Made by a program: the position numbers and the translations under genes | Source: Planctomycetales bacterium | GTDB taxonomy: Bacteria; Planctomycetota; Planctomycetia; Planctomycetales; Planctomycetaceae | Direction: 5' to 3' | Assembly: GCA_020050375.1 (NCBI GenBank) | Contig: JAGVKR010000464.1 | Span: 1-11,989 of the forward strand | Length of the DNA stretch: 11,989 nucleotides | The notes under the pieces: generated by a model | What the model was told of the DNA's origin: nothing | Database searches by the model: none | The model's input: only the letters and a program-made list of their open reading frames with translations | Shown here: positions 1-11,989 of the stretch, piece by piece | Layout of the letters: every line of letters begins with the position of its first letter | Numbering within the stretch: position 1 is the first letter of the stretch

Positions 1-105
1 GATTTCCGGCAGGTCTACGCGACCGTTCTGGAGAGCTGGCTGGGCATTCGCTCGAGCGACGTGCTCGGCGAACGGTTCGAGCCGCTGAAGCTGTTCCAGG
101 CGTGA
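1..105 (+). CDS. DUF1501 family protein, C-terminal fragment
   Basis: Only the last 34 codons and the TGA stop lie in the window; the start is off the left edge. The visible tail reads DFRQVYATVLESWLGI, then a short segment with VLGERFEPLKLF. This matches the usual end of DUF1501 proteins, which have an alkaline-phosphatase/sulfatase-like fold and are very numerous in planctomycetes, often beside DUF1549/DUF1553 cytochrome-type genes. The function of the family is not established; many members carry a Tat-type signal, but the N-terminus cannot be seen here. The next gene starts 444 bp downstream, so it is probably not part of the biosynthetic cluster that follows. Confidence 0.75.
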   Translation, partial: DFRQVYATVLESWLGIRSSDVLGERFEPLKLFQA

Positions 106-324
106 CGCGGGAAAGGGTGGGGAGCGTGACTGCCGCCGCCGCAGGACACGCACTCGCTCGCCCGGAGGCTCTATGAAGCTTCGCAACTGGAGGTGGTCGA
201 GGCGTGCGAGGGAATGCCCCTCGAACCCGGTTGGGCCTTCATCGCTCCAGGGGGCCGGGACAGGAAGGTTGCGGTTCGCGCCGGCCCGCAAAAGAATCAT
301 GTGATCTCGTCACCGAGCGGAGGG

Positions 325-336
325 CTGGCGCGCCAG
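325..336. repeat. 12-bp perfect palindrome CTGGCGCGCCAG
   Basis: The sequence CTGGCGCGCCAG is its own reverse complement. It lies in the gap upstream of methyltransferase A and 11 bp before the ATG of the weak ORF at 348. Palindromes of this size can arise by chance in GC-rich DNA, so a role as an operator is only a possibility. Confidence 0.3.
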
Positions 337-347
337 GGCGTGGCCAA

Positions 348-512
348 ATGGACCAGGAATTCTCGTTTTTGTGCAGGCCATGGGCCAGTTTTGTCGATGC
401 GGCTGTATTCGCCGGGTTTCCGAGAGCATTCGGAGTCTGGCTCGACGATGTGGAGGCGCGGCGGATTCTGCTCAAGGGCTGGCCCCTGCGCATCACGGAA
501 GACGCTCTCTGA
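348..512 (+). CDS. Possible small protein, 54 aa, unrecognised
   Basis: This ORF starts with ATG, begins MDQEFSFLCRPW and ends ITEDAL, with its stop 37 bp before methyltransferase A. I do not recognise it. In its favour are a reasonable amino-acid mix and a third-codon-position GC of roughly 70%. Against it are the lack of a visible Shine-Dalgarno sequence and overlap with other open frames on both strands. The longer version of this frame starting at 204 looks like noise, being rich in R, G and P. It may be a real short gene, the remnant of a longer one, or chance. Confidence 0.2.
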   Translation: MDQEFSFLCRPWASFVDAAVFAGFPRAFGVWLDDVEARRILLKGWPLRITEDAL

Positions 513-549
513 CGAATCCACCCACCCTCTTGCAAAACAGTGAATCCGC

Positions 550-1464
550 ATGTCCATCGCTCTTGACGTAAAAACCGGACCGGGGCGGCAGGCCGACGAG
601 ATTGCTCCGCCGTCGAAATCGAAGACCCGCGGACTGGAGCGCCCATCCATCGCACAGCGCGTCGGCGCGGCGCTGCTCAATCCCGCCAAGAATTTCCTGG
701 CGCCGGCCGCCTGGCTGCAAAAGTTACTGCGGCAGAGCGCCAGCCCGTTGCTCGCCGAGTCGTTTCTTCGCCCTGGCGGCTGGCGGTCGATGGAGATCAT
801 CTATCGCAACGACGAGCCGGTTGACTGGCTCGACCGGCAGGCCCTCCGCGACAATCCCATCTCGATGGCGTCCCGGAACCGATTGCAGCTCGTTAGCCAG
901 CGCCTCGCTACGCTGATCGCGATGTACGGCCGTCGTGGATCGGTGAACATCCTGGGCGTCGGCGCCGGGCCAGGCAGACACGTGCAGTCGGCCATTGTCG
1001 AATCCGGGATCGAGCCAGGACATGTGACTGCACACTTGGTGGACCTCGATGACGACGCCTTCGACTACGGCCGCGCGCTGGCGGCGAGAATGGGAATCGC
1101 CTCTTCAATTCACTTCCGGCAGGGGGATGCGCGGTCCATCCGCACCGCATTGCCCGAGATGCAGGCGCAAATCGTCAAACTCGTCGGCCTGGTTGAGTAT
1201 TTGAACGATGCCCAATTCCTCGAACTTCTCGCGGCGATGAAAACCGTGATGAGCGACGACGCGACGCTCGTCACGCATGGCTTCGTCGACGCCTTCCGTT
1301 CACGCCGGTTTCTGTCCCGCGTGTTCAACCTGCGGCACCAGCGGCGTTCGGCGAAACAGATGATCGCGCTGTTGGAATCTGCGGGATTTCGTGCCGTGGA
1401 AACAACGACCGAGCCGGTCGGCGTGTATCCGATCATTACGGCGGTGCGCGACGCTAGAAGGTAG
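550..1464 (+). CDS. Class I SAM-dependent methyltransferase A
   Basis: A 304-residue soluble protein. Residues 130-195 form the SAM-binding half of a Rossmann-type methyltransferase: motif I ILGVGAGPGRH (134-144), an acidic ribose-binding segment VDLDDD (164-169) and GDAR (192-195). A conserved upstream block GGWRSMEIIYRN (76-87) and an arginine-rich C-terminal region ending GVYPIITAVRD recall the Methyltransf_20 (PF12147) group; that family assignment is tentative. The acceptor is unknown. The ATG at 550 is preferred because the paralogue at 6318-7229 aligns with it residue for residue (about 65% identity over 61-300, no gaps). No Shine-Dalgarno sequence is evident. The gene converges on the acyltransferase gene, with 25 bp between their stops. 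Methylation of the product of the neighbouring ligase/ACP/acyltransferase genes is inferred from position only. Confidence 0.82.
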   Translation: MSIALDVKTGPGRQADEIAPPSKSKTRGLERPSIAQRVGAALLNPAKNFLAPAAWLQKLLRQSASPLLAESFLRPGGWRSMEIIYRNDEPVDWLDRQALRDNPISMASRNRLQLVSQRLATLIAMYGRRGSVNILGVGAGPGRHVQSAIVESGIEPGHVTAHLVDLDDDAFDYGRALAARMGIASSIHFRQGDARSIRTALPEMQAQIVKLVGLVEYLNDAQFLELLAAMKTVMSDDATLVTHGFVDAFRSRRFLSRVFNLRHQRRSAKQMIALLESAGFRAVETTTEPVGVYPIITAVRDARR

Positions 1465-1489
1465 GCCGGCCCGGAGCCGCTTTGCGGGA

Positions 1490-2395
1490 TCAAGCTGCTC
1501 GCCGAACCGCGGATGGGTCCTCGATTGCGACCGACTGCGGACTGGCCAGATGGTTCCTCAGCGTGCTCACGAAAGCTGCGGCTTGGTGCCCGTTCACCAT
1601 CCGGTGATCGAAGCGGATGAACAGCGTCGCCTGCTTGCGGATGACGATCGCGTTGTCGACCACGACCGGTTTGGGCTCGGCCAGGCCCATCGTCACGATG
1701 ATCGAATAGGCGTTCATGGGCAGAGCCGCTGCCTTGTGGGCGATCAGCGGAGGCGCACCCGGATAGCCCAGGTAGTTGACGAAGGCATTGGCGCCGTTGA
1801 GCTCCTGTTGCCAAGCCCAGAACGTCGGGACGCGCACGCGATTGCCCACGGCAAAGGCGATCGGGCTCATCCGGTGGATCCACATCAACCGGAAACGCCG
1901 AGCAATGGTCAGGCCCAGCGATTTCCAGGAAGGTCCGGCCTGACGGCGGCGTTTTTCGGCAGCGATCTCGTGAGATTTGCTACGGGCCTCATTCCAGAAG
2001 TGACTGGCGACGTCCGACAGCGACATCTGGTCGGCCTTGTGCAGAAACACGCTATCCACTTCGCCGTTGCTCGATCGTAGCATGGGCATCACGATGTTGA
2101 CGCCGTCGTACTGGTAGACGCGATGGCCGAACACGCGGCGGTTGACCGACGGGTGCTCGATCAGGCTGCGGGCCACGGCGCACACCAGGAAATGCGCCGG
2201 CGAAACGATCAAACCGGTGCGCTGCCGTTGTTCGGCCAAAAAGGCCTCCAGCGGCTCGGTCTCGACGGTCGTACCCCAAACGAGCAGGGGATCGCAGCGT
2301 GGCGCGGGACCAGACAGATATGTGGTGTTGATCCACCCCAGGTCTTCGAGCGGAACAGGACGAGAATGCGTGGGCCAGTACACAGGAAGCTCCAA
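1490..2395 (-). CDS. Stand-alone CAT/E2-fold acyltransferase
   Basis: A 301-residue protein resembling the catalytic domain of 2-oxoacid dehydrogenase E2 subunits and the chloramphenicol acetyltransferase fold (PF00198-like). The C-terminal part, NAYSIIVTMGLAEPKPVVV (228-246) then FDHRMVNG (262-269), follows the E2 pattern, with His264 as the catalytic base of HxxxDG. The aspartate of that motif is Asn268 here. There is no lipoyl domain or E1/E3-binding domain, so it is unlikely to serve a pyruvate-type complex. It lies 45 bp after the ACP stop in the same operon, which makes acyl-S-ACP a natural donor; the acceptor is unknown. The start is TTG at 2395: a TGA at 2443-2441, the ACP stop in the same frame, excludes anything further upstream, and no ATG or GTG occurs between that stop and 2395. 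No clear Shine-Dalgarno sequence precedes it, so coupling to ACP translation is plausible. Confidence 0.75.
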   Translation of the reverse strand: MELPVYWPTHSRPVPLEDLGWINTTYLSGPAPRCDPLLVWGTTVETEPLEAFLAEQRQRTGLIVSPAHFLVCAVARSLIEHPSVNRRVFGHRVYQYDGVNIVMPMLRSSNGEVDSVFLHKADQMSLSDVASHFWNEARSKSHEIAAEKRRRQAGPSWKSLGLTIARRFRLMWIHRMSPIAFAVGNRVRVPTFWAWQQELNGANAFVNYLGYPGAPPLIAHKAAALPMNAYSIIVTMGLAEPKPVVVDNAIVIRKQATLFIRFDHRMVNGHQAAAFVSTLRNHLASPQSVAIEDPSAVRRAA

Positions 2396-2440
2396 CGAAG
2401 AAAGTCGTTTGTGACCGTGAAAACGGCGTGCGAAAGCAGG

Positions 2441-2707
2441 TCAAGCAGCGCGCCGCTGAACGGTCGGGCATTGCCGGGAGACAATCAGCGCCGCCAGCGT
2501 GGAGGGCGTGCGAAAGACTTCGGGAGTGAGGTCTCCGAAATCCAGCCGCAACTGAAACGTCGTCTCCACGAAGACCAGCAGATCCATCATCGTCAACGAG
2601 TCGGTGGCTCCCGCCGCTTGCAAGTCGGTCTCGCGCTCGAGACCGGTTTCTCCGGTAATCGAACGCAGGAAGTCCACAATTTGCTGTTCCACAACGCCCT
2701 GAGACAT
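2441..2707 (-). CDS. Stand-alone acyl carrier protein
   Basis: An 88-residue carrier protein of the PP-binding family (PF00550). The phosphopantetheine serine is Ser37 in the ATDSLTMMDLLVFVE segment (35-49), and helix III lies around LTPEVFRTPSTLAALI (60-75), so length and layout are normal for a free-standing ACP. It should receive an acyl group from the ligase encoded just upstream (89-bp gap) and present it to the acyltransferase just downstream. The ATG is well supported by an AGGAG ribosome-binding site 9 nt upstream. The protein ends in QRRAA, and the next protein of the operon also ends in RRAA. No 4'-phosphopantetheinyl transferase is encoded in the window, so a housekeeping enzyme would have to activate it. 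Confidence 0.9.
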   Translation of the reverse strand: MSQGVVEQQIVDFLRSITGETGLERETDLQAAGATDSLTMMDLLVFVETTFQLRLDFGDLTPEVFRTPSTLAALIVSRQCPTVQRRAA

Positions 2708-2716
2708 GATTCCTCA

Positions 2717-2721
2717 CTCCT
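2717..2721 (-). promoter_or_regulatory. Ribosome-binding site of the ACP gene
   Basis: On the minus strand the sequence AGGAG lies 9 nt before the ACP ATG. It is one of the clearer Shine-Dalgarno sequences in the window and fixes the ACP start at 2707. Confidence 0.7.
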
Positions 2722-2796
2722 GGAATTCTGCGAAAGATGAATTTGGGTTCGGCCGTATGTTGGATTCAGGGGCAGGCGCGCCGCGCAACGCGGGAT

Positions 2797-4536
2797 TCAA
2801 CGGTTCGCCGGAATGAGCCCGAAGCCGATTCGCGGTATGATTCGGCTGGCAACTGTGCGCTGTCGTGCAGAATGGTGCTCGGCCCGTTGCGTCAGCGCCA
2901 GCCGATCGATTTTCATGGCGTGATTCAAGGGAAACTCGTCAACGAGCTCGGCGAAGGCCGGCACAAGATGGCGCGGCAACTCGGCGCGGCAACTCGCGAT
3001 GATCGTCGCGACGTCCAACTTGTTGCGGGTCGCATCGGATTTCACGTACACCGCCAACCGCGTGCCGACGTCGGCTGATTCGAACGCTACGGCAACGGCA
3101 TGTCGCGCCGCGAGCCGGCGGCAAATGAAATCCTCCAGTTCACCGAGATTGACGCGAAAGCCGGCGATCTTGACGAACGAATTGGCCCGCCCCTTCAGGC
3201 AAATCATTCCCGAATCGTCGATCGTGGCCAAATCCCCGGTGCGAAGCCAGCCGTCGCAGAAGCGCTCGGCCGTGGCTGCCGGGTCGCGCCAGTAACCCAG
3301 CATCACGTTCGGTCCGCGTGCGCGCAGCTCTCCCACTTCCCCCGGAGCCACCGTGCGGTCTTGTTCGTTCACGACCCACAATGTCACTCCCGGAACACCG
3401 CGACCGATGCAGCCCTCGGCCAGGTCATCGGCGAGCCGCTCCGGCGGCACGTACGCCAATCGGGCCGTCGCTTCGGTCTGCCCGTACATCACGTAGAATT
3501 CGGCGGGACGAATCCGTCGGGCGACCTCCAGGGCCAGCTCGCGCCGCAGCGCTCCCCCTGCAACAGCCATGGACCGCAGCGCCGGCAGACGTGTTTTTCC
3601 CAGTGAAGTGCGATCCAGCAGCAGCCGAAACAGATCGGGGACGCCGGACAGGCTGGTGCATTCGTGCTGCACCAGGGCCTGGACAATCGTTTCGGGAAAT
3701 GACGTGTTGCCGTCCAATACCAATTCGGCTCCGGCCAGCAGGTGCGATTGCAGAACCGAGTTTCCGAAGGCGTGATGAAAAGGGAGAACACACAGCGGTC
3801 GGTCCGAGGGGCCGATCGACAGGTAGCCCTGAATCGCCTGCGCATTGGAAATCAGATTGCGATGGCTGAGCATGACCCCTTTCGGTGTGCCGGTCGATCC
3901 TCCGGTGAAGAAGACCGCCGCCAACTCATCGCCCGTCGTCTCATCGGCAATCGCCGCCACGGGTGGTTCCGAAGACTCCGCTGCGTCCAGCGAGAGCGGC
4001 TCTTGCCGCAATATCCAAGGGTCTTTACGGGAGCGCACCACTTCGGACGTTGCTAAGAGCAGCCGCGCATCTGTCATTTCGAAGATCGCGTTCAGGCTGC
4101 CGCTCTCTGTTCGCGGTGGGACCGGCACGACGACCCCCCCGGCCAAAAGCACACCATAGAACCCCGCCGCGTACTCGGCTGAATTCGGTGCGATCAGAAT
4201 CACCCTGTCGCCGCAAAGAAAACTCGCTTCGTTCTTCAGGCGCTGAGCGATCGCCGTCGCGCCCGCCAGCAAGCGCGCATAACTCCAGTTTGCCACACTC
4301 GTCCGAATGGCCGCAGCCTCTCTGCTGCGCGCCGCTACGTCAGCGAACAAACGCCCGAGGTGACAGCCGGTCCCCGGCAGTTGATCGAACGAAAAGTCGC
4401 CGCAGGGAGCGCTGCTTCTCTGCCGCTCCGCCGAGCGTGGCGCGGCGGCAAACCCCGGATCAAATCGGTCGCGAGGTCCGGAGGCGCCCGCTTCGAGCAG
4501 CAGAACTTTGCGAACGGCAGTTTGTCCATGCGACAT
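2797..4536 (-). CDS. AMP-forming acyl/aryl-acid ligase (ANL superfamily)
   Basis: A 579-residue adenylate-forming enzyme (PF00501 plus C-terminal PF13193-type domain), predicted to activate a carboxylic acid with ATP and load it on the adjacent ACP. Visible motifs: A3 P-loop TGGSTGTPKG (211-220, normally TSGSTG), A4 LPFHHAFG (251-258), A5 YGQTEAT (351-357), A7 GWLRTGDL (429-436), A8 hinge GRANSFVKIAGFRVN (449-463) and the A10 lysine Lys542 in LNHAMKIDR. Where amino-acid-activating domains carry an amine-binding Asp after the A4 Phe, this one has Phe257-Gly258, which favours a fatty or aryl acid. About 55 residues precede the normal domain start. The ATG at 4536 is chosen over an in-frame TTG at 4551. 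It is the first gene of a three-gene operon with the ACP and acyltransferase. It could instead be a CoA ligase. Confidence 0.87.
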   Translation of the reverse strand: MSHGQTAVRKVLLLEAGASGPRDRFDPGFAAAPRSAERQRSSAPCGDFSFDQLPGTGCHLGRLFADVAARSREAAAIRTSVANWSYARLLAGATAIAQRLKNEASFLCGDRVILIAPNSAEYAAGFYGVLLAGGVVVPVPPRTESGSLNAIFEMTDARLLLATSEVVRSRKDPWILRQEPLSLDAAESSEPPVAAIADETTGDELAAVFFTGGSTGTPKGVMLSHRNLISNAQAIQGYLSIGPSDRPLCVLPFHHAFGNSVLQSHLLAGAELVLDGNTSFPETIVQALVQHECTSLSGVPDLFRLLLDRTSLGKTRLPALRSMAVAGGALRRELALEVARRIRPAEFYVMYGQTEATARLAYVPPERLADDLAEGCIGRGVPGVTLWVVNEQDRTVAPGEVGELRARGPNVMLGYWRDPAATAERFCDGWLRTGDLATIDDSGMICLKGRANSFVKIAGFRVNLGELEDFICRRLAARHAVAVAFESADVGTRLAVYVKSDATRNKLDVATIIASCRAELPRHLVPAFAELVDEFPLNHAMKIDRLALTQRAEHHSARQRTVASRIIPRIGFGLIPANR

Positions 4537-4815
4537 AAGGGGTCCCGCCAATTCCGCGCGTTTTTTCGACCGAGCCTGCTTCTCCTTTGTTGCTCTTTAT
4601 CGGATTTGTCGCCCGCGCAATCGTTACGGAGAGTGGATTCGGATCATGCCGGAAGGCGATTTCCGGTTGCGGCTCGGTCGAACCGGCAAAGGCGGCCGAC
4701 GGACCGCGACCGTCACAGCTTCTCCGATCGGCAGATTCCTGCCAGAGCTCGGACTCAGTCGCGGTTCGGCCGACAACCCGAATCCCAGCGATAATTGGCA
4801 AAGAAGGAACGACTG

Positions 4816-4840
4816 GTTGCTCGATACTTATTGGAGCAAC
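4816..4840. promoter_or_regulatory. 7-11-7 inverted repeat, candidate operator
   Basis: GTTGCTC (4816-4822) and GAGCAAC (4834-4840) are exact reverse complements around an 11-nt, comparatively AT-rich spacer. The size and spacing fit the binding site of a dimeric helix-turn-helix regulator. It lies 108 bp before the oxygenase start and in the shared upstream region of the ligase operon. No regulator gene is present in the window. Confidence 0.35.
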
Positions 4841-4935
4841 AGGCAAGTTCGGACGCGCCGTGTTGAGCACCGCCGCGACGAGAGTTTCCGGCGGACACCG
4901 AAGAACGGTCGTCGGCCGGGCTGCTGCGTCCGTGC

Positions 4936-4941
4936 AAGGAG
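4936..4941 (+). promoter_or_regulatory. Ribosome-binding site that sets the oxygenase start
   Basis: AAGGAG lies 7 nt before a GTG codon at 4949. This decides the start of the oxygenase: the frame is open for another 440 bp upstream, but the homologous part of the protein begins after this GTG. Confidence 0.75.
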
Positions 4942-4948
4942 ACGATTC

Positions 4949-5980
4949 GTGCCGACCATCGAAAGTCATCCGCGGACGCCGATCCTGCAGCGAGCTGTCG
5001 AAAGCACGCAGCTTGAGCGGTTCCAGACATCGAAACTCGATGAACACGGCTCGCTGCCGCTGCTGGTTGAGCCTCAGCCCGGTGAACCGGCGACAACCGA
5101 CAATCTGATCGAATGGATCGAGACCCGCCGTGAATGGCTGGACGACATGCTGCATTGGCATGGAGGGGTGTTGTTCCGCGGCTTCGAACTGCGCGAGGTC
5201 GCGCAATTCCAGAGGGTCTCGCAGGCGATCATTCCGGCCTTGAAGCCCTACGTCGAGGGGCAGTCGCCGCGGACGAAGGTTGCCGACAACGTGTACACGT
5301 CGACCGAGTTCCCCGCGCAATACCGCATCACTCTGCACAACGAGTTGTCGTATGCCAAGGCTCCCCCGTCGCGGATCATCTTTCACTGCCACATTCCTCC
5401 AACCGAGGGAGGTGAGACGCCGATTGTCGACTGCCGCGTGCTGTACACGGCGATGGATTCCGACCTCCGCGAACGATTCGAGCGGCTTGGCGTCAAGTAC
5501 GCCAAGAACATGCACGGTCAAGAACGCGGTCTGGGAAAATCGTGGATGGAGCATTTTGAGACCAACGACCGCAACGTCGTCGAAGGCTATCTGCGCGAGA
5601 ACGACATCGACTTCGAGTGGACTGACGACAGAACCCTGCGGACGTGGTCCATCCGCCCGGGCGTGATTCGGCACCCGATCACCGGTGAAAAGCACTGGTT
5701 CAACCAAGCCAACTTGTGGCACGTCACGAACGTTGACGAGCGGCATCGGGGCCAACTACTGGAACGCTGCGGCGAAGATAATCTGCCGACCCACGCTTTC
5801 TACGGAAACGGCCAGCCCATTGACTCGGCCGATCTCGATCGCGTGCGGCAGGTGATGTGGGACAATGCCGTTATCTTCACGTGGCGACAGGGAGACGTGC
5901 TGGTCCTCGATAACTTGCTGGTCGCACATGGCCGTATGCCCTACAAGGCCCCGCGGAAAATCCTAGTTGCGATGGGGTAA
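4949..5980 (+). CDS. SyrP/TauD-like Fe(II)/2-oxoglutarate oxygenase
   Basis: A 343-residue member of the TauD/TfdA family (PF02668), closest in pattern to SyrP-type and clavaminate-synthase-like enzymes that oxidise tethered or free biosynthetic intermediates. Iron ligands are visible as His130 and Glu132 (LHNELSY, an HxE version of HxD) and His327 (NLLVAHGRMPY), with Arg336 in APRKILVAM placed to bind 2-oxoglutarate. Other family marks are VLFRGF (74-79), the GGETPIVDCR segment (154-163) and WFNQANLWH (250-258). It is expected to be cytoplasmic and to hydroxylate, or possibly desaturate, a substrate while turning 2-oxoglutarate into succinate and CO2. The GTG start is fixed by the AAGGAG site at 4936. 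It is transcribed divergently from the ligase operon and shares its control region, so an ACP-bound or released acyl product is a likely substrate. Confidence 0.87.
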   Translation: MPTIESHPRTPILQRAVESTQLERFQTSKLDEHGSLPLLVEPQPGEPATTDNLIEWIETRREWLDDMLHWHGGVLFRGFELREVAQFQRVSQAIIPALKPYVEGQSPRTKVADNVYTSTEFPAQYRITLHNELSYAKAPPSRIIFHCHIPPTEGGETPIVDCRVLYTAMDSDLRERFERLGVKYAKNMHGQERGLGKSWMEHFETNDRNVVEGYLRENDIDFEWTDDRTLRTWSIRPGVIRHPITGEKHWFNQANLWHVTNVDERHRGQLLERCGEDNLPTHAFYGNGQPIDSADLDRVRQVMWDNAVIFTWRQGDVLVLDNLLVAHGRMPYKAPRKILVAMG

Positions 5981-6115
5981 TTCGCCGCGCGACAATTCCA
6001 ATCCACAAGGACGCAGGCTGCACAACGATTGTAATTCAAGTCATCGTCGGACTTTCCGCATTATCCGTGATCCTGCCCCTGGTGCTGGCCTGGCTGTCAT
6101 AGGGGAAACGCCGGT

Positions 6116-6193
6116 ATGAATTATACGAACCACTCTGCGCGACCCAGGCGGATCCTGATTCGAGACGCGGCTGGAGGCGTCGTCCCCTACTGA
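6116..6193 (+). CDS. Possible 25-aa peptide ORF
   Basis: ATG at 6116 opens a 25-codon ORF beginning MNYTNHSARPRR and ending GGVVPY. AGGGGAAA lies about 8 nt upstream, a fair ribosome-binding site. I recognise no family. The window shows no maturation enzyme typical of a ribosomal peptide system, so this may be chance. Confidence 0.15.
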   Translation: MNYTNHSARPRRILIRDAAGGVVPY

Positions 6194-6281
6194 CCGGGAG
6201 CCGACATTTCACTGACAGGTCTCCGCTGAATCACGCGTTCCAGGTCGATCGGCCGCGCTCGTTGCAACTGGCGGAGCGCGA

Positions 6282-6306
6282 GGCGGCCCGCCGCCGGACA
6301 CCGGCG
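6282..6306 (-). terminator. Overlapping GC-rich hairpins, candidate terminator
   Basis: Two perfect inverted repeats share bases: GGCGGC-CC-GCCGCC (6282-6295) and CGCCGG-ACA-CCGGCG (6292-6306). On the minus strand they begin 11 nt after the stop of methyltransferase B. No T-run follows, so this is not a classical intrinsic terminator, though it could stop or slow polymerase or stabilise the 3' end of the operon transcript. The two stems exclude each other. Confidence 0.4.
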
Positions 6307-6317
6307 TGAGGCGGTCG

Positions 6318-7229
6318 TCAATCGGGGTCTCGAACCGCGGTGATGATCGGGTAAACCCCGGCCGGCTCAACGGCGCAGTCCACCGGGCGTAAACCGACCG
6401 ATTCCAGCAGGGTTGCCATGTGTGCTCCGGTCCGCCGGCGATGACGCAGATTGAAGACTCGCGCCAGAAAGCGGCCGCTGCCGTAGGGGTCAATCAGGCC
6501 GTGTGTGAGCAGGCTCGCTCCCGGCGACATCACATCGCGGAGGGCCCGCAACAGCTCGACGAGCTCCGCGTCGGAGAGGTATTCCACCAGTCCGACCAGC
6601 TTGACGATCTGAGCCGATACGTCGGGAAGCGCCTCGCGAACGCGGCAGGCGTCGCCGCGGAGGAAGTGGACGGAGCGCGCGATCCCAAATGAAAGGGCCA
6701 GATGTCGCCCGTAGCCGAAGGCCGAATCGTCGCGGTCGATCAGGTAAGCAGTGACGCGGGAGGGAGCGACGGCCGACTCGACGAGGGCCGATTGCACGTG
6801 CCGCCCTGGCCCGGCGCCGACCCCCAGGATCGTGACGTCGCCGTCGGCCGCGTAGCGGGCGATCAGCTCGGCCAGCTTTCGTGTGACAATCTTGCGGCGA
6901 TTGCGACAGGCCATCGACACCGGATTGTCGCGCAGGGCCTGGCGATCGAACCAGTCAAGAGGCTCGTTGTTGCGGTAGATGATCTCCATGGACCGCCAGC
7001 CGCCGGGGCGGGCCAACGATTCGGCGATCAGCGGGCTCTGGCTGCGAGCCAGCCGTTTCCGAAGCAAGACGGCGGGCAGCAGGTAGTTCTTCCACGGATT
7101 GGCGATCAGCCAGCGCGTGCGCTGCAGCGTCGTCGGTTCTTCGAGTTGGGTCGCGTCGACGGCAGGCGCTCGAACGGCCGCGGTGGGTCGCGCCTCGCTG
7201 ATCCGTCGGGGTTCGATGACGGTGGACAT
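6318..7229 (-). CDS. Class I SAM-dependent methyltransferase B
   Basis: A 303-residue paralogue of methyltransferase A that aligns with it without a gap over the full length: about 156 of 240 residues are identical between 61 and 300. The marks are the same: GGWRSMEIIYRN (76-87), motif I ILGVGAGPGRH (134-144), the acidic segment LIDRDD (163-168), RGDA (191-194) and the C-terminal GVYPIITAVRD. The N-terminal 30 residues differ. It is the last gene of a three-gene minus-strand operon, 30 bp after the GNAT gene; the spacer contains a repeated GGACCGGG-like motif and no good Shine-Dalgarno sequence. The tentative family is Methyltransf_20-like and the substrate is unknown. Keeping two copies suggests two methylations or two acceptor specificities in one pathway, which is an inference. 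Confidence 0.83.
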   Translation of the reverse strand: MSTVIEPRRISEARPTAAVRAPAVDATQLEEPTTLQRTRWLIANPWKNYLLPAVLLRKRLARSQSPLIAESLARPGGWRSMEIIYRNNEPLDWFDRQALRDNPVSMACRNRRKIVTRKLAELIARYAADGDVTILGVGAGPGRHVQSALVESAVAPSRVTAYLIDRDDSAFGYGRHLALSFGIARSVHFLRGDACRVREALPDVSAQIVKLVGLVEYLSDAELVELLRALRDVMSPGASLLTHGLIDPYGSGRFLARVFNLRHRRRTGAHMATLLESVGLRPVDCAVEPAGVYPIITAVRDPD

Positions 7230-7259
7230 TGTCGGGGACCGGGAAACAGGGACCGGGTG

Positions 7260-8504
7260 TCAACCGGGGAACGGGACCGTGACCGGTCGCGCCGGGAACA
7301 ATTGCTTCGAGAGCAGGCGAATTACGTTTTCCATGATGAAACCGACCCCCTTGATGTAAAAAAACCGCGGGGTCTGGTAGCTCGTGAGCTTGATCGTCTT
7401 GCACTGGTCGGCATTCTGGCCGAGCAGGACAAGTTTCGTCCGGTTTCGCAAGGCCTCGGCGACCGAGGCATACATCATGTTGAAGTACAGATCGTAGTCG
7501 CGGTTGCGGTCGTAATCGACACCGAGGAACAGCGGGTGGTATTCGGTTTCGGAGAACAGGCACAGGCCGAACCCGCGAACCGTGTCGCCGTCCATAGCAA
7601 AGGAGATTTCACAATTGCCGGGAAGCTGCCGGACCATTTCGCGAAAGAACTCCACCGGGAGCATTTCGAGTTTGGTGTCGGAGCGACTGACGACGGCGTC
7701 GTACATCCGGTGGACTTCGGGGGTGAACAGGCGATCGACCTCGTCGGGGTCGGAGGTGGTGACCATCCGCAGGCCCCCCTCGGAGAACTTCTTGATCGAC
7801 TTGCGGGCCTCGTACCGCTTCTTGTTGTGGAGGCTGCCGAGAAAGCCTTCGAAGTCGGCATGCTCGAGGCCGAGCTGATTCATGGGAAGGCTGTCGGCCC
7901 GCAGATAGCCCAGGTCGCCGGCTGCTTCGACGGCGGAAAGCTCGTGCTCCTGGAATTCCTTGAGGACGATGCACTTTGCCCCATCTTCCCGGGCGATCGT
8001 CCGCAACATGCCGTCGAGGGCGGTGAGGATCGCTCGCTGATCGACTCCCTCGGCAAACCGCAGATGGCTCTGTCCCCCCGAGAAGGGGAGGCCGCAGAAA
8101 ACGATCTTGTACGTCACGAGCACGGGGGAGATCCGTTTCAGGGCGCACGCCATGCGACGTGCGAACCCCTTCTCGACGAGCACCGTTCCGTCGACCGAAT
8201 AGGTGCACAGGCAGGCGCTTGCGGCCGGCTTGCCGTCGGCATCGCGGAACAATACGTAGCGAAACGTCGCGTCGCGGGCCATCGAGGCCTCGACGGCGCG
8301 GAGCAGACGGACGTCCATGAACAGGTCGTGGGGTGTCCGCAGATGATTCCAGGCAGTGGTGTCGATTTCGTCGACCGCGGCCCAGACCTGCGCTTCATAT
8401 GTCGTGAGACGCCGATCGTCACGCTGTTCACGGAACACTGACAGCGGTGGCGCTGTGGACTGCGTCTTGACGTCCGGAAAACCGGTGCGCGCAGCTTGTG
8501 ACAT
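7260..8504 (-). CDS. FemAB-like GNAT-fold transferase
   Basis: A 414-residue protein with the double-GNAT look of FemAB-like / Acetyltransf_6 proteins (PF13480/PF04339 type). The N-terminal half carries the WNHL...FMDVRLLRAVEAS segment (52-74) and the C-terminal half a GNAT core: HNKKRYEARKSIKK (226-239), then FAMDGDTVRGFGLCLF (302-317) and YHPLFLGVDYDRNRDYDLYFNMMYASVAEAL (322-352). Known relatives transfer amino acids from aminoacyl-tRNA to peptidoglycan precursors, or make N-acyl amino acids in exopolysaccharide/PEP-CTERM loci; which reaction applies here cannot be read from sequence. The ATG is supported by GAGGAG 10 nt upstream. The gene sits 32 bp after the DUF2156 gene and 30 bp before methyltransferase B, a clear operon. 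No membrane segments or signal peptide are seen. Confidence 0.78.
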   Translation of the reverse strand: MSQAARTGFPDVKTQSTAPPLSVFREQRDDRRLTTYEAQVWAAVDEIDTTAWNHLRTPHDLFMDVRLLRAVEASMARDATFRYVLFRDADGKPAASACLCTYSVDGTVLVEKGFARRMACALKRISPVLVTYKIVFCGLPFSGGQSHLRFAEGVDQRAILTALDGMLRTIAREDGAKCIVLKEFQEHELSAVEAAGDLGYLRADSLPMNQLGLEHADFEGFLGSLHNKKRYEARKSIKKFSEGGLRMVTTSDPDEVDRLFTPEVHRMYDAVVSRSDTKLEMLPVEFFREMVRQLPGNCEISFAMDGDTVRGFGLCLFSETEYHPLFLGVDYDRNRDYDLYFNMMYASVAEALRNRTKLVLLGQNADQCKTIKLTSYQTPRFFYIKGVGFIMENVIRLLSKQLFPARPVTVPFPG

Positions 8505-8536
8505 ATCGGAGTTGCTCCTCGATCAAAACCGCAGGA

Positions 8537-9856
8537 TCAGGCGTTGTCGGAAAGCGTTTTTCGCGCGACGCGCTTGCGAGCTCGCTCGACCATGATTCGG
8601 GCGACGTTGCCCAGATTGAGATTGAAAACCCCGAACACGCGGAGAAAAGCGATCACCGAACCGAAGGAAACTTTGGGCAGCGCGCAGACGTATCGGTTTT
8701 CATAGCGCGGGCGGAAACGGCTCTTGAAGTGCTGAACACCGGCGAAGTCGAAGATGCCTCCGAGGTATTTGCTCCCGTAGTGCAGGCCGCCGCGGATGAG
8801 AAAACTATCTCCAGGCATCGGCGTCTCGAGGCCGCGCCCCGGATCGAGGCACATCGGGACCTGCCGAACTCCTTCAGCCTGAAGCTGCTGCAGGATGTGA
8901 TGGAACAGGAAGGCGACCGTGCCGCGAACCGAGTCTAGCCGATGGCGATAAAGCTCGGTCGCCCACTTCGTTCCCCCCAGGATCGGATTGCAGACGACAA
9001 AGCCTTCGATCCGGCCAGCGCCGTGCGAGCTGCGAGCGATGAACAACCTCCGCAGCCCCAGGTCGTGGGTGTCGATCCGGCCCTCGAAGAATTTCATCTC
9101 TTCGGCTTGAGGCTTCCGCGAAAGCGATTCGGCGGCGACTTCGAGGACCTCGGCGAGGGTTCTGGCCCATTGTTCAGGTTCGAGCTCTTCCGGGCGTACC
9201 TCAAAGGCAGCCAGCCCGTGCCGCTGGCAGAAATTCGTCTGCCGGCGGACCCACTCGAACGGCTTGCCTCCCCAGGTGCAGGACCCCAGATCGACCACCG
9301 GCTCTTCGCCCCACTTGGTGACCTGAAAGCCGTGCTTGCGGTAGACAGGGAGATCCTCGTCGCCGATGTTGTGGAACGCGACGTGCAAGTTGTGCCGCTT
9401 GACATGCTCGACGAACTGACCAAGCAATTCGTCCTTGTGCGACTCGGGGGCGATCAGGCCTCCTCCAACCAGGGCGTACCTTCCACGGCGAACGTAGGAA
9501 ATCAGGCCGCGCTGGCGGGTGGAGAAGAAATACAGCCGATCGGGTTCAGTCGCGAGGTACGAATCGAAGTACTGTCCGTGCTCGAAGACAAATTGTTCGA
9601 GTGACTGTTCGGTGCCGATGATGCCGGCAGGGCTTCGGACCGGAGCCAGTTTCGTTCCACCCCCGGTCACGAGCTCCGGACGGGGAATCCCGGGATCGAC
9701 TCGCCGATACCCGCCATTGGAACGCGAGACCGGATTAGGGGTGGTGGTCGCGGGCGTGGCGTGTGGCGACGCGATGTGAAGGTTTGTCATTGGCGCTCGT
9801 TCAACCGTGTCGCTCGTGGCGATCGGCGGCTTACGGCGAGTGACGCCTTGAGACAT
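8537..9856 (-). CDS. DUF2156 (MprF C-terminal-like) aminoacyl/acyl transferase
   Basis: A 439-residue soluble protein built on the DUF2156 domain (PF09924), the catalytic part of phosphatidylglycerol lysyltransferases. The first 75 residues are low in complexity (T, P, S) and probably disordered. The domain runs from about 85 to 390: YFDSYLATEPDRLYFFS (96-112), GGLIAPE (132-138), VYRKHGFQVTKWGEE (171-185), GFVVCNPILGG (285-295) and a terminal FKSRFRPRYENRYVC pattern (377-391) typical of the family. No multi-pass flippase region like that of full MprF is present. A hydrophobic stretch near 397-415 could touch the membrane. The ATG at 9856 is chosen because AAGGA lies 7 nt upstream; the frame stays open to 10300, but that part looks non-coding. 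It is first in an operon with the GNAT and methyltransferase B. Confidence 0.8.
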   Translation of the reverse strand: MSQGVTRRKPPIATSDTVERAPMTNLHIASPHATPATTTPNPVSRSNGGYRRVDPGIPRPELVTGGGTKLAPVRSPAGIIGTEQSLEQFVFEHGQYFDSYLATEPDRLYFFSTRQRGLISYVRRGRYALVGGGLIAPESHKDELLGQFVEHVKRHNLHVAFHNIGDEDLPVYRKHGFQVTKWGEEPVVDLGSCTWGGKPFEWVRRQTNFCQRHGLAAFEVRPEELEPEQWARTLAEVLEVAAESLSRKPQAEEMKFFEGRIDTHDLGLRRLFIARSSHGAGRIEGFVVCNPILGGTKWATELYRHRLDSVRGTVAFLFHHILQQLQAEGVRQVPMCLDPGRGLETPMPGDSFLIRGGLHYGSKYLGGIFDFAGVQHFKSRFRPRYENRYVCALPKVSFGSVIAFLRVFGVFNLNLGNVARIMVERARKRVARKTLSDNA

Positions 9857-9872
9857 GTGACCTTCCTTTTCC

Positions 9873-9899
9873 TGTGGATTGACCAGGGTGTGGATTGAC
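9873..9899. repeat. Direct repeat TGTGGATTGAC x2, 16-bp period
   Basis: TGTGGATTGAC occurs at 9873-9883 and again at 9889-9899. The copies are exact and sit just upstream of the ribosome-binding site of the DUF2156 gene, in its probable 5' leader or promoter. A 16-bp period is more than one helical turn, so a regulator could bind both copies, but this is untested. Confidence 0.4.
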
Positions 9900-10489
9900 T
9901 GCCGACTTCGACCGAATCGCTTTGTTGCTCGCCCTTCGGTCGTCCGAAGCCGCGCTTGCCTGCAAAAGGGGACGTAGATCGGCTGCGCTGGCGCGCGAAG
10001 GCTCGCGGCACCGAAATTCATGTCAGCAGTATCGGTCATTCCTGAAGTCAACTTTGGCGCGGTCAAATGCAATGCGCGCGGTGTTTCGGCTGTGTCGACT
10101 AGTTCACCGGATGTATGAAAGAATCCGGCCATTCTCTGGCGAAAGTCGGAAGCGAGCGGGCAGTTATGCCGGTTTTTCCGGGGCTGGGGCAGTCGATTTG
10201 GGGCTTGGACCGAACCGCGCGTCCGTACAGAAGCGGTATTCGTGAACACTTTCGCATTCGGCACGTTCGCGCCAGGCGCCCTTTCGATATTGAACAGCAT
10301 TGATTGCCTATGTGTAACAGTATCCCCATGCTTCCCATTTTCATCGGGGAATCTGCCGGTCTACGGCGTTTGCGCTGGTCAGTTGAAGCGCGCGATGACG
10401 GTTACCCCGGGTCGAGGATCGGAGTATCGGCTTGGGATATGGGGGTCGGGAGTTAACGAAACGGGCTTTTCATGATCGCGGGATCTTTG

Positions 10490-10505
10490 ATCCGGCAAGC
10501 CGGAT
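10490..10505. repeat. Inverted repeat ATCCGGC-AA-GCCGGAT
   Basis: A perfect 7-bp stem with a 2-nt centre lies 39 bp upstream of the leader ORF and 116 bp upstream of the SGNH start. It may be an operator or a short hairpin in the leader transcript. A nearby GGATC-TTT-GATCC (10481-10493) overlaps its left arm. Confidence 0.3.
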
Positions 10506-10544
10506 GTGTAAGCTGAAGGTTCCAAGCTTCGGGAGAGACGACCG

Positions 10545-10610
10545 ATGGCTTTCGCCCCTGTTTCGCGACGCCGAATCAGTTGTCGACCGTCCCCCAAGAA
10601 CGTTCACTGA
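10545..10610 (+). CDS. Possible 21-aa leader ORF upstream of SGNH gene
   Basis: ATG at 10545 opens a 21-codon ORF (begins MAFAPVSRRR, ends KNVH) with GGGAGAG about 7 nt upstream. Its TGA overlaps the AAAGGAA ribosome-binding site of the SGNH gene, and only 11 nt separate its stop from the main start, which would allow translational coupling. The peptide is arginine-rich with no recognised function. It may be fortuitous. Confidence 0.25.
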   Translation: MAFAPVSRRRISCRPSPKNVH

Positions 10611-10621
10611 AAGGAATCGTC

Positions 10622-11671
10622 ATGTGCGCTCGTCCTGTTGGTCTGGGAATTTTCGCCGGTCTTTTGGGATGGGGGGTACTGATGAATGGGATCGCCGTTG
10701 GGGCAGAGAACGAGCCCGCGCTGAAACCTCACGAGCGGATCGTATTTCTCGGGGACTCAATCACGCAGGCGGGAGCCAGCCCGGGAGGGTATGTCACGCT
10801 CGTGGCAGAGGCGTTGGCCACCAAGCAGAAGCTTAAGGATCTCAAAATCGAAGTTGTCGGGGCCGGAGTCAGCGGCAATCGCGTGCCCGATCTCGAGGCG
10901 CGGCTCGAACGCGACGTGCTGGCGAAGAAGCCGACGCTGGTCGTGATCTATATCGGGATCAACGACGTGTGGCACTCTCTCAACGGGCGCGGGACGCCCA
11001 AAGACGAGTACGAACAAGGATTGCGTCGAATCGTCAAGAAGATTCAGGACAGCGGCGCTCGCGTCGTCCTTTGCACTCCGAGCGTGGTCGGCGAGCGAAG
11101 TGACGGATCGAACCAGCTCGATCACATGCTCGATGAATACGCCGAGATCAGCCGCAAGGTGGCGCAATCAACCAAGTCGCGCCTGCTCGACTTGCGGCGA
11201 CAGTTCATTGGCCATCTGAAAAAGAACAATCCGAAGAATGACGACAAGAACTTTCTCACGACTGACGGCGTGCACTTGAACGCCGCCGGCAATCGTTTCG
11301 TCGCCGACCGCGTGCTGGAAACGTTGGGCGTTCGGGGCGCTGCAGCGGTCGCAACGGGGCCAGACCGCTTGCTACGGCACGTCGTGTTGTTCAAGTTCAA
11401 AGAGGAGGTGGCGGGCCCCCAAGTGCAGGAAGTGATCGACGCCTTTGCTGCGCTCCCCGGCAAAATCCCCGAGATTCACGACTTCGAATGGGGGACCGAC
11501 GTCAGCGTCGAGAACAAGGCGGACGGCTTCACGCACTGCTTTTTCGTGACGTTCCGCGATGAAAAGGGACGCGAGACGTATTTGCCGCACGCCGCTCATC
11601 AGGAATTCGTCAAGCTCGTCGGTCCGCGGATCGACAAAGTGCTGGTTGTCGACTACTGGACGAAGCGGTGA
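10622..11671 (+). CDS. Secreted SGNH/GDSL hydrolase fused to a Dabb domain
   Basis: A 349-residue protein. Residues 1-28 form a signal peptide with a hydrophobic core GLGIFAGLLGWGVLMNGIAV and a probable cut after VGA (28). The SGNH hydrolase domain (PF13472 type) follows with block I GDSITQAG, nucleophile Ser46; the block II glycine in GVSGNR (82-87); the block III Asn114 in YIGINDVW; and block V Asp215/His218 in DGVHLNAAG. It should act outside the cytoplasm as an esterase or acetyl-esterase, probably on carbohydrate esters. From about 250 a second domain begins (LRHVVLFKFKEE ... LPHAAHQEFVKLVGPRIDKVLVVDYW), a stress-responsive A/B barrel (Dabb, PF07876). The ATG at 10622 is preferred to an in-frame TTG at 10580 because AAAGGAA precedes it and the signal peptide then starts correctly. 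It is probably unrelated to the cluster on its left. Confidence 0.88.
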   Translation: MCARPVGLGIFAGLLGWGVLMNGIAVGAENEPALKPHERIVFLGDSITQAGASPGGYVTLVAEALATKQKLKDLKIEVVGAGVSGNRVPDLEARLERDVLAKKPTLVVIYIGINDVWHSLNGRGTPKDEYEQGLRRIVKKIQDSGARVVLCTPSVVGERSDGSNQLDHMLDEYAEISRKVAQSTKSRLLDLRRQFIGHLKKNNPKNDDKNFLTTDGVHLNAAGNRFVADRVLETLGVRGAAAVATGPDRLLRHVVLFKFKEEVAGPQVQEVIDAFAALPGKIPEIHDFEWGTDVSVENKADGFTHCFFVTFRDEKGRETYLPHAAHQEFVKLVGPRIDKVLVVDYWTKR

Positions 11672-11691
11672 AGGGGATGCGAAAGATTGTG

Positions 11692-11711
11692 GTGTGGACT
11701 TCAGTCCACAC
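11692..11711. repeat. REP-like hairpin 1
   Basis: GTGTGGAC and GTCCACAC form a perfect 8-bp stem around a TTCA loop. It pairs with a related hairpin 11 bp downstream. Short intergenic elements of this kind are a feature of planctomycete genomes as I recall them, but copy number has to be counted genome-wide. Confidence 0.7.
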
Positions 11712-11722
11712 GAGCTGTTGGA

Positions 11723-11746
11723 TCGTGTTGGCTAAAGTCAACACGA
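11723..11746. repeat. REP-like hairpin 2
   Basis: TCGTGTTGGC and GTCAACACGA pair over 10 positions, one of them a G-U wobble, around a TAAA loop. The stem core GTGTTGAC/GTCAACAC resembles GTGTGGAC/GTCCACAC of hairpin 1, so the two look like related members of one element type. Confidence 0.7.
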
Positions 11747-11764
11747 CAGATTCTGGGCGCCCAG

Positions 11765-11989
11765 TCAGGCGAACGCGGGAATGCCGGTCAGCTTTTCACC
11801 CAGAATCAGCAGGTGCATGTCGTCGGTTCCCTCGTAAGTTTTCACGCTTTCGAGGTTGCACATGTGGCGGAAGCACTGGTGCTGGTCGAGGATTCCGACT
11901 CCTCCCAGCAGGTCGCGGGTCGTTCGGGCGATTTCCAGAGCGACGGCGACGTTGTTCCGTTTGGCGATGGAAATCTGCACGAATGTGGC
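11765..11989 (-). CDS. Acyl-CoA dehydrogenase, glutaryl-CoA dehydrogenase-like, C-terminal part
   Basis: Only the last 74 codons are present; the gene runs off the right edge. The segment AKRNNVAVALEIARTTRDLLGGVGI, then RHMCNLESVKTYEGTDDMHLLILG, is the C-terminal helical domain of acyl-CoA dehydrogenases and matches glutaryl-CoA dehydrogenases best (KRNN...LEIAR...RH..NLE.V.TYEGT.D.H.LILG). The glutamate of YEGT is the catalytic base in that family. It would be a cytoplasmic FAD enzyme, perhaps in lysine/tryptophan or dicarboxylate breakdown, though another acyl-CoA substrate is possible. It converges on the SGNH gene with the hairpin pair between them. The residue that could be read as a start inside the window (GTG at 11980) is internal. 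Confidence 0.88.
   Translation of the reverse strand, partial: ATFVQISIAKRNNVAVALEIARTTRDLLGGVGILDQHQCFRHMCNLESVKTYEGTDDMHLLILGEKLTGIPAFA

What the first reader, a model, noticed from the sequence alone, without database searches (positions are those of the whole stretch)
550..9856. Compact non-modular acyl-transfer cluster: ligase, ACP, E2-fold acyltransferase, SyrP-like oxygenase, two GNAT-fold transferases, two methyltransferases
Seen: eight genes in about 9.3 kb in three coherent units (MT-A; ligase-ACP-AT; oxygenase; DUF2156-GNAT-MT-B), with short intra-operon gaps. Known: ANL ligases load carrier proteins, SyrP-type enzymes oxidise biosynthetic intermediates, FemAB and MprF-type enzymes attach amino acids to cell-wall precursors or lipids, and GNATs can make N-acyl amino acids; planctomycetes are known to produce N-acyl amino acids such as stieleriacines. 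Inferred: these genes make a hydroxylated, methylated acyl-amino or aminoacylated lipid without NRPS/PKS modules. I recognise no described pathway with this exact set.
Basis: partly seen in the sequence, partly recalled or inferred. Interest (0 to 1): 0.7.

Follow-up and report, generated by a model that had tools for sequence, protein, structure and literature searches.

The report
Conserved planctomycete acyl-carrier biosynthesis cluster
A set of genes in planctomycete bacteria, inherited together across several genera but matching no pathway we found described, looks built to activate, oxidise and methylate an acid and to join it to an amino acid or lipid, so it probably makes a still unidentified cell-associated molecule.

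Summary

Best reading: an acid lacking an alpha-amine is loaded on the ACP, oxidised, methylated and passed by the E2-fold enzyme to an acceptor, often one aminoacylated from tRNA. Substrate and product are unknown. By gene content it is neither the stieleriacine nor the OlsH/OlsI pathway. An uncharacterised conserved cluster: a new variant of a known kind.

The parts
550..1464 (+). MT-A, class I SAM methyltransferase (PF12147); core gene
1490..2395 (-). E2-fold (CAT superfamily) stand-alone acyltransferase; core gene; start may be GTG 2383
   Evidence: PF00198 57.3 bits; profile matches E2 cores such as 1c4t, E 6.5e-15; catalytic His in 22 of 22 aligned (two rows dropped), HxxxN in place of HxxxD in 17 of the 19 close homologues
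2441..2707 (-). stand-alone acyl carrier protein; core gene
   Evidence: PF00550; phosphopantetheine Ser in the DSL motif, 23 of 23
2797..4536 (-). ANL (AMP-forming) acyl ligase; core gene; longest ORF begins at 4551
   Evidence: PF00501 242.7 bits; ANL motif residues and the C-terminal Lys conserved, 22 of 22; PF.HA.GNSV motif without an acidic residue, 22 of 22
4537..4948 (.). 412-base spacer between the divergent ligase and oxygenase genes, the likely shared control region (inference)
   Evidence: gap computed; divergent ligase//oxygenase order also in L033 and L079-L085, and in L035 with one more ORF between
4949..5980 (+). Fe(II)/2-oxoglutarate oxygenase, TauD family, SyrP-like; core gene; start uncertain
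   Evidence: PF02668 143.2 bits; closest solved 1y0z E 3.3e-41; HNE...H...R conserved 15 of 15, one fragment dropped
6318..7229 (-). MT-B, paralogue of MT-A (63% identity)
   Evidence: the other 18 MT genomes show one match each; G001 has one copy, beside its MprF-type gene
7260..8504 (-). double-GNAT transferase of FemX-like fold; accessory, in the cluster only in this window
8537..9856 (-). MprF C-terminal-type (LPG_synthase_C, DUF2156) transferase without flippase; accessory
   Evidence: PF09924 133.5 bits; closest solved 4v36, B. licheniformis L-PGS, E 5.5e-16; in 9 of 20 E2 loci read

Best explanation
A conserved, non-modular acyl-ACP pathway of Planctomycetaceae. The ligase adenylates a carboxylic acid that lacks an alpha-amine and loads it on the stand-alone ACP. 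The TauD/SyrP-like enzyme oxidises the ACP-bound acyl group and the PF12147 enzyme methylates it or the product. The E2-fold enzyme then moves the acyl group from the ACP to an amine or hydroxyl acceptor. In many loci an MprF-type transferase, and in this window also a FemX-like transferase, add amino acids from aminoacyl-tRNA to that acceptor. The product would be an aminoacyl/acyl conjugate held in or near the membrane. Shown here: the families, the conserved catalytic residues, the conserved cluster and its co-inheritance. Inferred: the order of steps, that oxidation occurs on the ACP, the acceptor, tRNA dependence, and the lipid nature of the product.
For: E2 and methyltransferase co-occur in 18 genomes (20 with close E2, 19 with MT, of 397) and in the same 5 of 186 genera, also on separate contigs. 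Close oxygenase orthologues (64% identity or more to the L033 protein) occur in 17 of 21 E2 genomes and 0 of 43 others. Ligase-ACP-E2-LPG with divergent oxygenase-MT in six genomes of genus g55 (Gimesia) and in G164. 35 contigs of at least 4 kb share the exact length of the longest contig between at least two of the E2, MT and oxygenase homologue lists; E2-MT 18 matches against 0.05 by jitter. E2 and MT trees agree in their main groups by eye. In-cluster MprF-type genes fall in two lineages. Catalytic residues kept. GNAT is FemX-like by predicted fold. None of the eight window genes matched a transporter family, which fits a cell-associated product.
Confidence: 0.5

Rival explanations
1. Two neighbours, not one pathway: the core acyl-ACP pathway, plus a separate membrane-lipid aminoacylation set (MprF-type, FemX-like, MT-B) that happens to lie beside it.
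For: MprF-type/GNAT pairs occur without the core in G002. In G035 and other g35 genomes the MprF-type matches lie on other contigs or far from the core.
Against: The MprF-type gene follows E2 directly in six g55 genomes and G164. MT pairs with the MprF-type gene in L033 and G001 and with the oxygenase in g55. In-cluster MprF-type genes fall in two lineages, as if recruited twice (one long branch).
Confidence: 0.25
2. A soluble, tRNA-dependent small-molecule antibiotic, like valanimycin or dehydrophos, in which the MprF-type or FemX-like enzyme acts on a small acceptor rather than on a lipid.
Against: No exporter, regulator or resistance family among the Pfam hits of the eight. The MprF-type protein is closest to the lipid-acting L-PGS among solved structures.
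Confidence: 0.15
3. A dissociated NRPS-like module working on an amino acid (ligase as A, ACP as T, E2-fold as C, oxygenase as SyrP acting on aspartyl-S-carrier).
For: The ligase scores 247 bits to the amino acid adenylation model, below its cutoff of 317; E2 and condensation domains belong to one fold superfamily (recalled); the oxygenase is SyrP-like (recalled label).
Against: The ligase motif that holds the alpha-amine Asp in A domains is PF.HA.GNSV without any acidic residue in 22 of 22 (the Asp rule is recalled). E2 is PF00198, with no condensation-domain hit.
Confidence: 0.1

Closest known systems
Stand-alone ligase/carrier pairs DltA-DltC and AsbC-AsbD(-AsbE) (mechanism recalled)
   Same: stand-alone AMP-forming ligase loads a small carrier protein that hands the acyl group to a separate transferase; the ACP is weakly similar to DltC and AsbD models
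   Different: scores far below the cutoffs (23.8 against 68; 21.3 against 100); the transferase here is E2-fold; oxygenase and methyltransferase added
Planctomycete ornithine lipid pathway OlsH-OlsI-OlsG (PMC12493201; abstract and passages seen)
   Same: short planctomycete operon with acid activation, acyl transfer and methylation, for an amino lipid
   Different: OlsH is GH3 (PF03321) and OlsI an alpha/beta-hydrolase; here PF00501, ACP and E2-fold, plus oxygenase and tRNA-type transferases
Stieleriacine / N-acyl tyrosine clusters (PMC12479983; passages seen)
   Same: planctomycete, acyl transfer with methylation
   Different: NAS, ThiF and nitroreductase genes mark it; none is among the window families
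MprF / lysyl-PG synthase
   Same: LPG_synthase_C domain, closest solved 4v36
   Different: no flippase part; lies with an acyl-ACP pathway
FemX / Sba18-type aminoacyl-tRNA-dependent transferases
   Different: 14% identity or less; Pfam FemAB_like; no solved relative by sequence profile
Exosortase A-associated acyl ligase TIGR03098
   Same: best NCBIfam hit of the ligase, 276 bits
   Different: below its cutoff of 592 bits; the hit of the GNAT to TIGR03019 is 12.8 against 260

Membership tests
Pyruvate/2-oxoacid dehydrogenase E2 component | PF00198 catalytic domain with active-site His | tested here: met
   57.3 bits; His in 22 of 22 aligned, two rows dropped
Pyruvate/2-oxoacid dehydrogenase E2 component | lipoyl domain on the protein | tested here: not met
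   301 aa, PF00198 only
NRPS module | condensation domain (Pfam Condensation) | tested here: not met
   no such hit at E 0.1 in the nine proteins scanned; E2 is PF00198
NRPS module | alpha-amine-binding Asp in the adenylation motif | tested here: not met
   PF.HA.GNSV in 22 of 22, no acidic residue; Asp rule recalled; the HMMER alignment to LgrA sets Gly at that Asp
Stieleriacine / N-acyl amino acid synthase cluster | NAS-type N-acyl amino acid synthase, with ThiF and nitroreductase genes | tested here: not met
   Pfam scan of nine window proteins finds none; definition from PMC12479983 (passages)
OlsH-type ornithine lipid pathway | GH3-like ligase (PF03321) | tested here: not met
   ligase is PF00501/PF13193; definition from PMC12493201 (passages)
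MprF | LPG_synthase_C domain | tested here: met
   133.5 bits against 27.5
MprF | N-terminal membrane flippase | tested here: not met
   only PF09924; bifunctional MprF model 116.5 bits against cutoff 600, best stretch at model positions 522-829 of 841
MprF | aminoacyl-tRNA to phosphatidylglycerol transfer | not testable with these tools
   needs an enzyme assay
FemABX | double-GNAT fold | tested here: met
FemABX | aminoacyl-tRNA-dependent transfer | not testable with these tools
SyrP-like 2OG oxygenase | TauD domain with HxE/D...H iron triad and 2OG-binding Arg | tested here: met
   PF02668; HNE, H and R in 15 of 15, one fragment dropped
SyrP-like 2OG oxygenase | acts on carrier-bound substrate | not testable with these tools
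   needs an enzyme assay
Exosortase A-associated ligase TIGR03098 | curated score cut-off | tested here: not met
   276.4 against 592.35 bits
PF12147 methyltransferase (YnbC-like C-terminal domain; YnbC recalled) | gathering score | tested here: met
   39.9 and 39.1 against 21 bits

The most novel reading that the evidence does not exclude
A new class of planctomycete membrane amino lipid, made by coupling tRNA-dependent aminoacylation (MprF-type, with or without a FemX-like second step) to an ACP-bound, oxidised and methylated acyl group delivered by an E2-fold transferase: a hybrid of ribosome-side and carrier-protein chemistry in which the E2/CAT fold does the work of a condensation domain.
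Probability: 0.3. Interest if true: 0.7.

Novelty: new variant of a known kind. Interest (0 to 1): 0.5.

Why it matters
The cluster has no PKS or NRPS megasynthase gene. It is conserved in several Gimesia species, a genus with named isolates, so its product could be sought by gene deletion. If the reading is right it would show an E2-fold enzyme used as a stand-alone acyl-ACP transferase, and an aminoacyl-tRNA route joined to an acyl-ACP route. It also gives the poorly described PF12147 methyltransferases and stand-alone MprF C-terminal domains a set of conserved neighbours that can be tested.

Tried and rejected
Stieleriacine-type pathway: rejected from the genes named in PMC12479983 (passages). 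OlsH/OlsI/OlsG pathway: rejected by Pfam class of the ligase. Anti-phage defence: no PADLOC hit for the eight proteins. RNA features: no Rfam hit and no tRNA in the window. Exosortase-linked genes: ligase and GNAT below cutoffs. Solved-structure search by sequence gave nothing useful for MT (two chance hits) or GNAT (two spurious repeat-protein hits; profile, none). The MT fold list names no substrate, and a family missing there is not excluded. Literature searches for a described cluster gave no match: (listings); passages seen in PMC12479983, PMC12493201 (abstract), PMC11631085 and PMC12945691. Rows dropped before counts: L036 and L094 from E2, L034 from oxygenase. In one search the three distant E2 homologues (G003, G022, G025) were not counted as E2; they are among the 43 'others' of the oxygenase count, with G300. 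The oxygenase count takes identity of 64% or more; G026 (45%) and weaker matches (32% or less) were left out. Searches are taken to be the same draw of 397 genomes (same size and handles); I could not check every member.
Full report
What is there. The window is contig C104, bases 1-11989, of a planctomycete assembly of 845 contigs, 66.6% complete. Eight intact genes lie at the given place. Pfam gives: two PF12147 methyltransferases, an E2 catalytic domain (PF00198) without lipoyl domain, an ACP, an AMP-forming ligase, a TauD oxygenase, a FemAB_like/Acetyltransf_6 protein and an LPG_synthase_C protein.

Is it one cluster? The E2 protein was searched in 397 genomes of the class and the methyltransferase in 397, taken to be the same draw. 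Close E2 homologues are in 20 genomes, MT in 19, both in 18. E2 without MT: G077 and G373. MT without E2: G300, an MT fragment at a contig end. Three more genomes have only distant E2 homologues (31-35% identity). At genus level both genes lie in the same 5 of 186 genera. The p-values ignore kinship and should not be used as such; 15 of the 18 genomes are of two genera. In G035, G202, G208 and G272 the two genes are on different contigs, so co-inheritance is not just linkage. In a phylum sample of 392 genomes 7 have a match, the own genome included, all of the window's family. The close oxygenase orthologue (64-82% identity to the L033 protein) is in 17 of 21 E2 genomes and 0 of 43 others searched; G026 has a 45% relative. 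The exceptions are G077, G373, G194 and G001. G001, of the window's own genus, keeps a 25-residue stretch of the oxygenase (72% identity) about 160 bases 5' of its ligase gene, where a whole gene would need far more room, and no other copy was found in that genome: the gene seems lost there while ligase, ACP, E2, MT, MprF-type and GNAT genes remain.

Gene order. I read 20 of 22 E2 loci (window, L033 and 18 of 20 other genomes; G202 and G272 only by coordinates). Ligase, ACP and E2 stand together in 19 of 20; in G391 the E2 gene lies at the contig end, and its oxygenase sits divergently beside a ligase fragment on another contig. The oxygenase is in the locus in 15, MT in 14, the MprF-type gene in 9, the FemX-like GNAT in 1 (the window). 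Six g55 genomes and G164 have ligase-ACP-E2-LPG with a divergent oxygenase-MT. Three g35 genomes (G284, G217, G371) have ligase-ACP-E2-oxygenase in one direction and MT divergent. L033, the closest relative (E2 77% identical), has LPG-MT, then E2-ACP-ligase, then oxygenase. G001 has LPG-MT beside GDSL genes on one contig, ligase-ACP-E2 on another and GNAT on a third. In G116 one frame begins as E2 and ends as LPG, a deletion remnant.

Metagenome support. In the lists of homologues (all 84; best 120 of 237; best 120 of 2519) I compared lengths of the longest contigs of 4 kb or more: 42 for E2, 70 for MT, 66 for oxygenase. Exact equal lengths: E2-MT 18, E2-OXY 9, MT-OXY 14; 35 contigs in all, the window included. 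Jittering the lengths gives 0.05 E2-MT matches on average, at most 2. This is an indirect test: equal length stands for same contig.

Accessory genes. MprF-type genes in the cluster fall in at least two lineages: the G164 in-cluster copy groups with the second copy of G099 (support 100/99), apart from the others. That row is flagged as a long branch and several deeper forks are weak. The FemX-like gene lies beside an MprF-type gene elsewhere, with or without the core: G002, G099 second locus, G164 C195, G194, G300. So the window joins a core pathway with a recurring aminoacyl-transfer pair and a second methyltransferase.

Trees. The E2 and MT trees (19 rows each) agree by eye in the groups G217/G371/G284, G035/G208, Gimesia and window/L033; G194 and G391 are loosely placed and no formal test was made. 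MT-A groups with the L033 gene (100/98) and MT-B does not, so the duplication may be older than that split.

Catalytic features. ACP Ser in 23 of 23. Core residues of the ligase phosphate loop, YGQTEATAR, TGD and the C-terminal Lys in 22 of 22. Oxygenase HNE, His and Arg in 15 of 15. E2 His264 in 22 of 22; the Asp of HxxxD is Asn in 17 of 19 close homologues, Asp in G391, His in G194, and Asp in the three distant homologues aligned. The ligase motif PF.HA.GNSV holds no acidic residue in 22 of 22, which argues against an alpha-amino acid substrate (the Asp rule is recalled).

How it probably works. The ligase activates an acid and loads the ACP; the oxygenase and methyltransferase modify it; the E2-fold enzyme transfers it. 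The MprF-type gene, present in 9 of 20 loci, suggests that the acceptor is an aminoacylated lipid, and FemX-like chemistry would add one more residue in this organism. None of the eight genes matched a transporter family. The order of steps and the product are inference.

What is known. No match to a described pathway was found in the library searched (listings, with passages of four papers). Most papers of subscription journals are not in that library, so a published match cannot be ruled out.

Noticed in passing
L036 (G000 C150) 2111-3570: The same genome carries a second, distant ACP-E2 pair (E2 32-33% identical); similar distant ligase-ACP-E2 sets lie in L037, L038 and L039, the last beside a P450 and a catalase-like gene.
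   Followed up: partly
10580-11671: GDSL esterase fused to a Dabb domain beside the cluster; in G001 a 70% identical gene also lies near the LPG-MT pair.
   Followed up: partly
L034 7664-7738: G001, of the window's genus, keeps only a 25-residue remnant of the oxygenase near its ligase gene.
   Followed up: partly
L094 6792-7643: In G116 one frame begins as E2 and ends as the MprF-type protein, which looks like a deletion between the two genes.
   Followed up: no
L035 12164-12901 and L096 11609-12475: ORFs with no Pfam hit lie between ligase and oxygenase in two g35 genomes.
   Followed up: partly
L083 2961-6789: In Gimesia the cluster is flanked by a thiamine-diphosphate enzyme, a 4HBT thioesterase and an FAD-binding oxidoreductase; the FAD gene stays where OXY and MT are missing (L086, L087).
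   Followed up: partly
L107 8202-9299: G026 has a 42-45% relative of the oxygenase beside a DUF1501 protein; no MT was found in that genome.
   Followed up: partly
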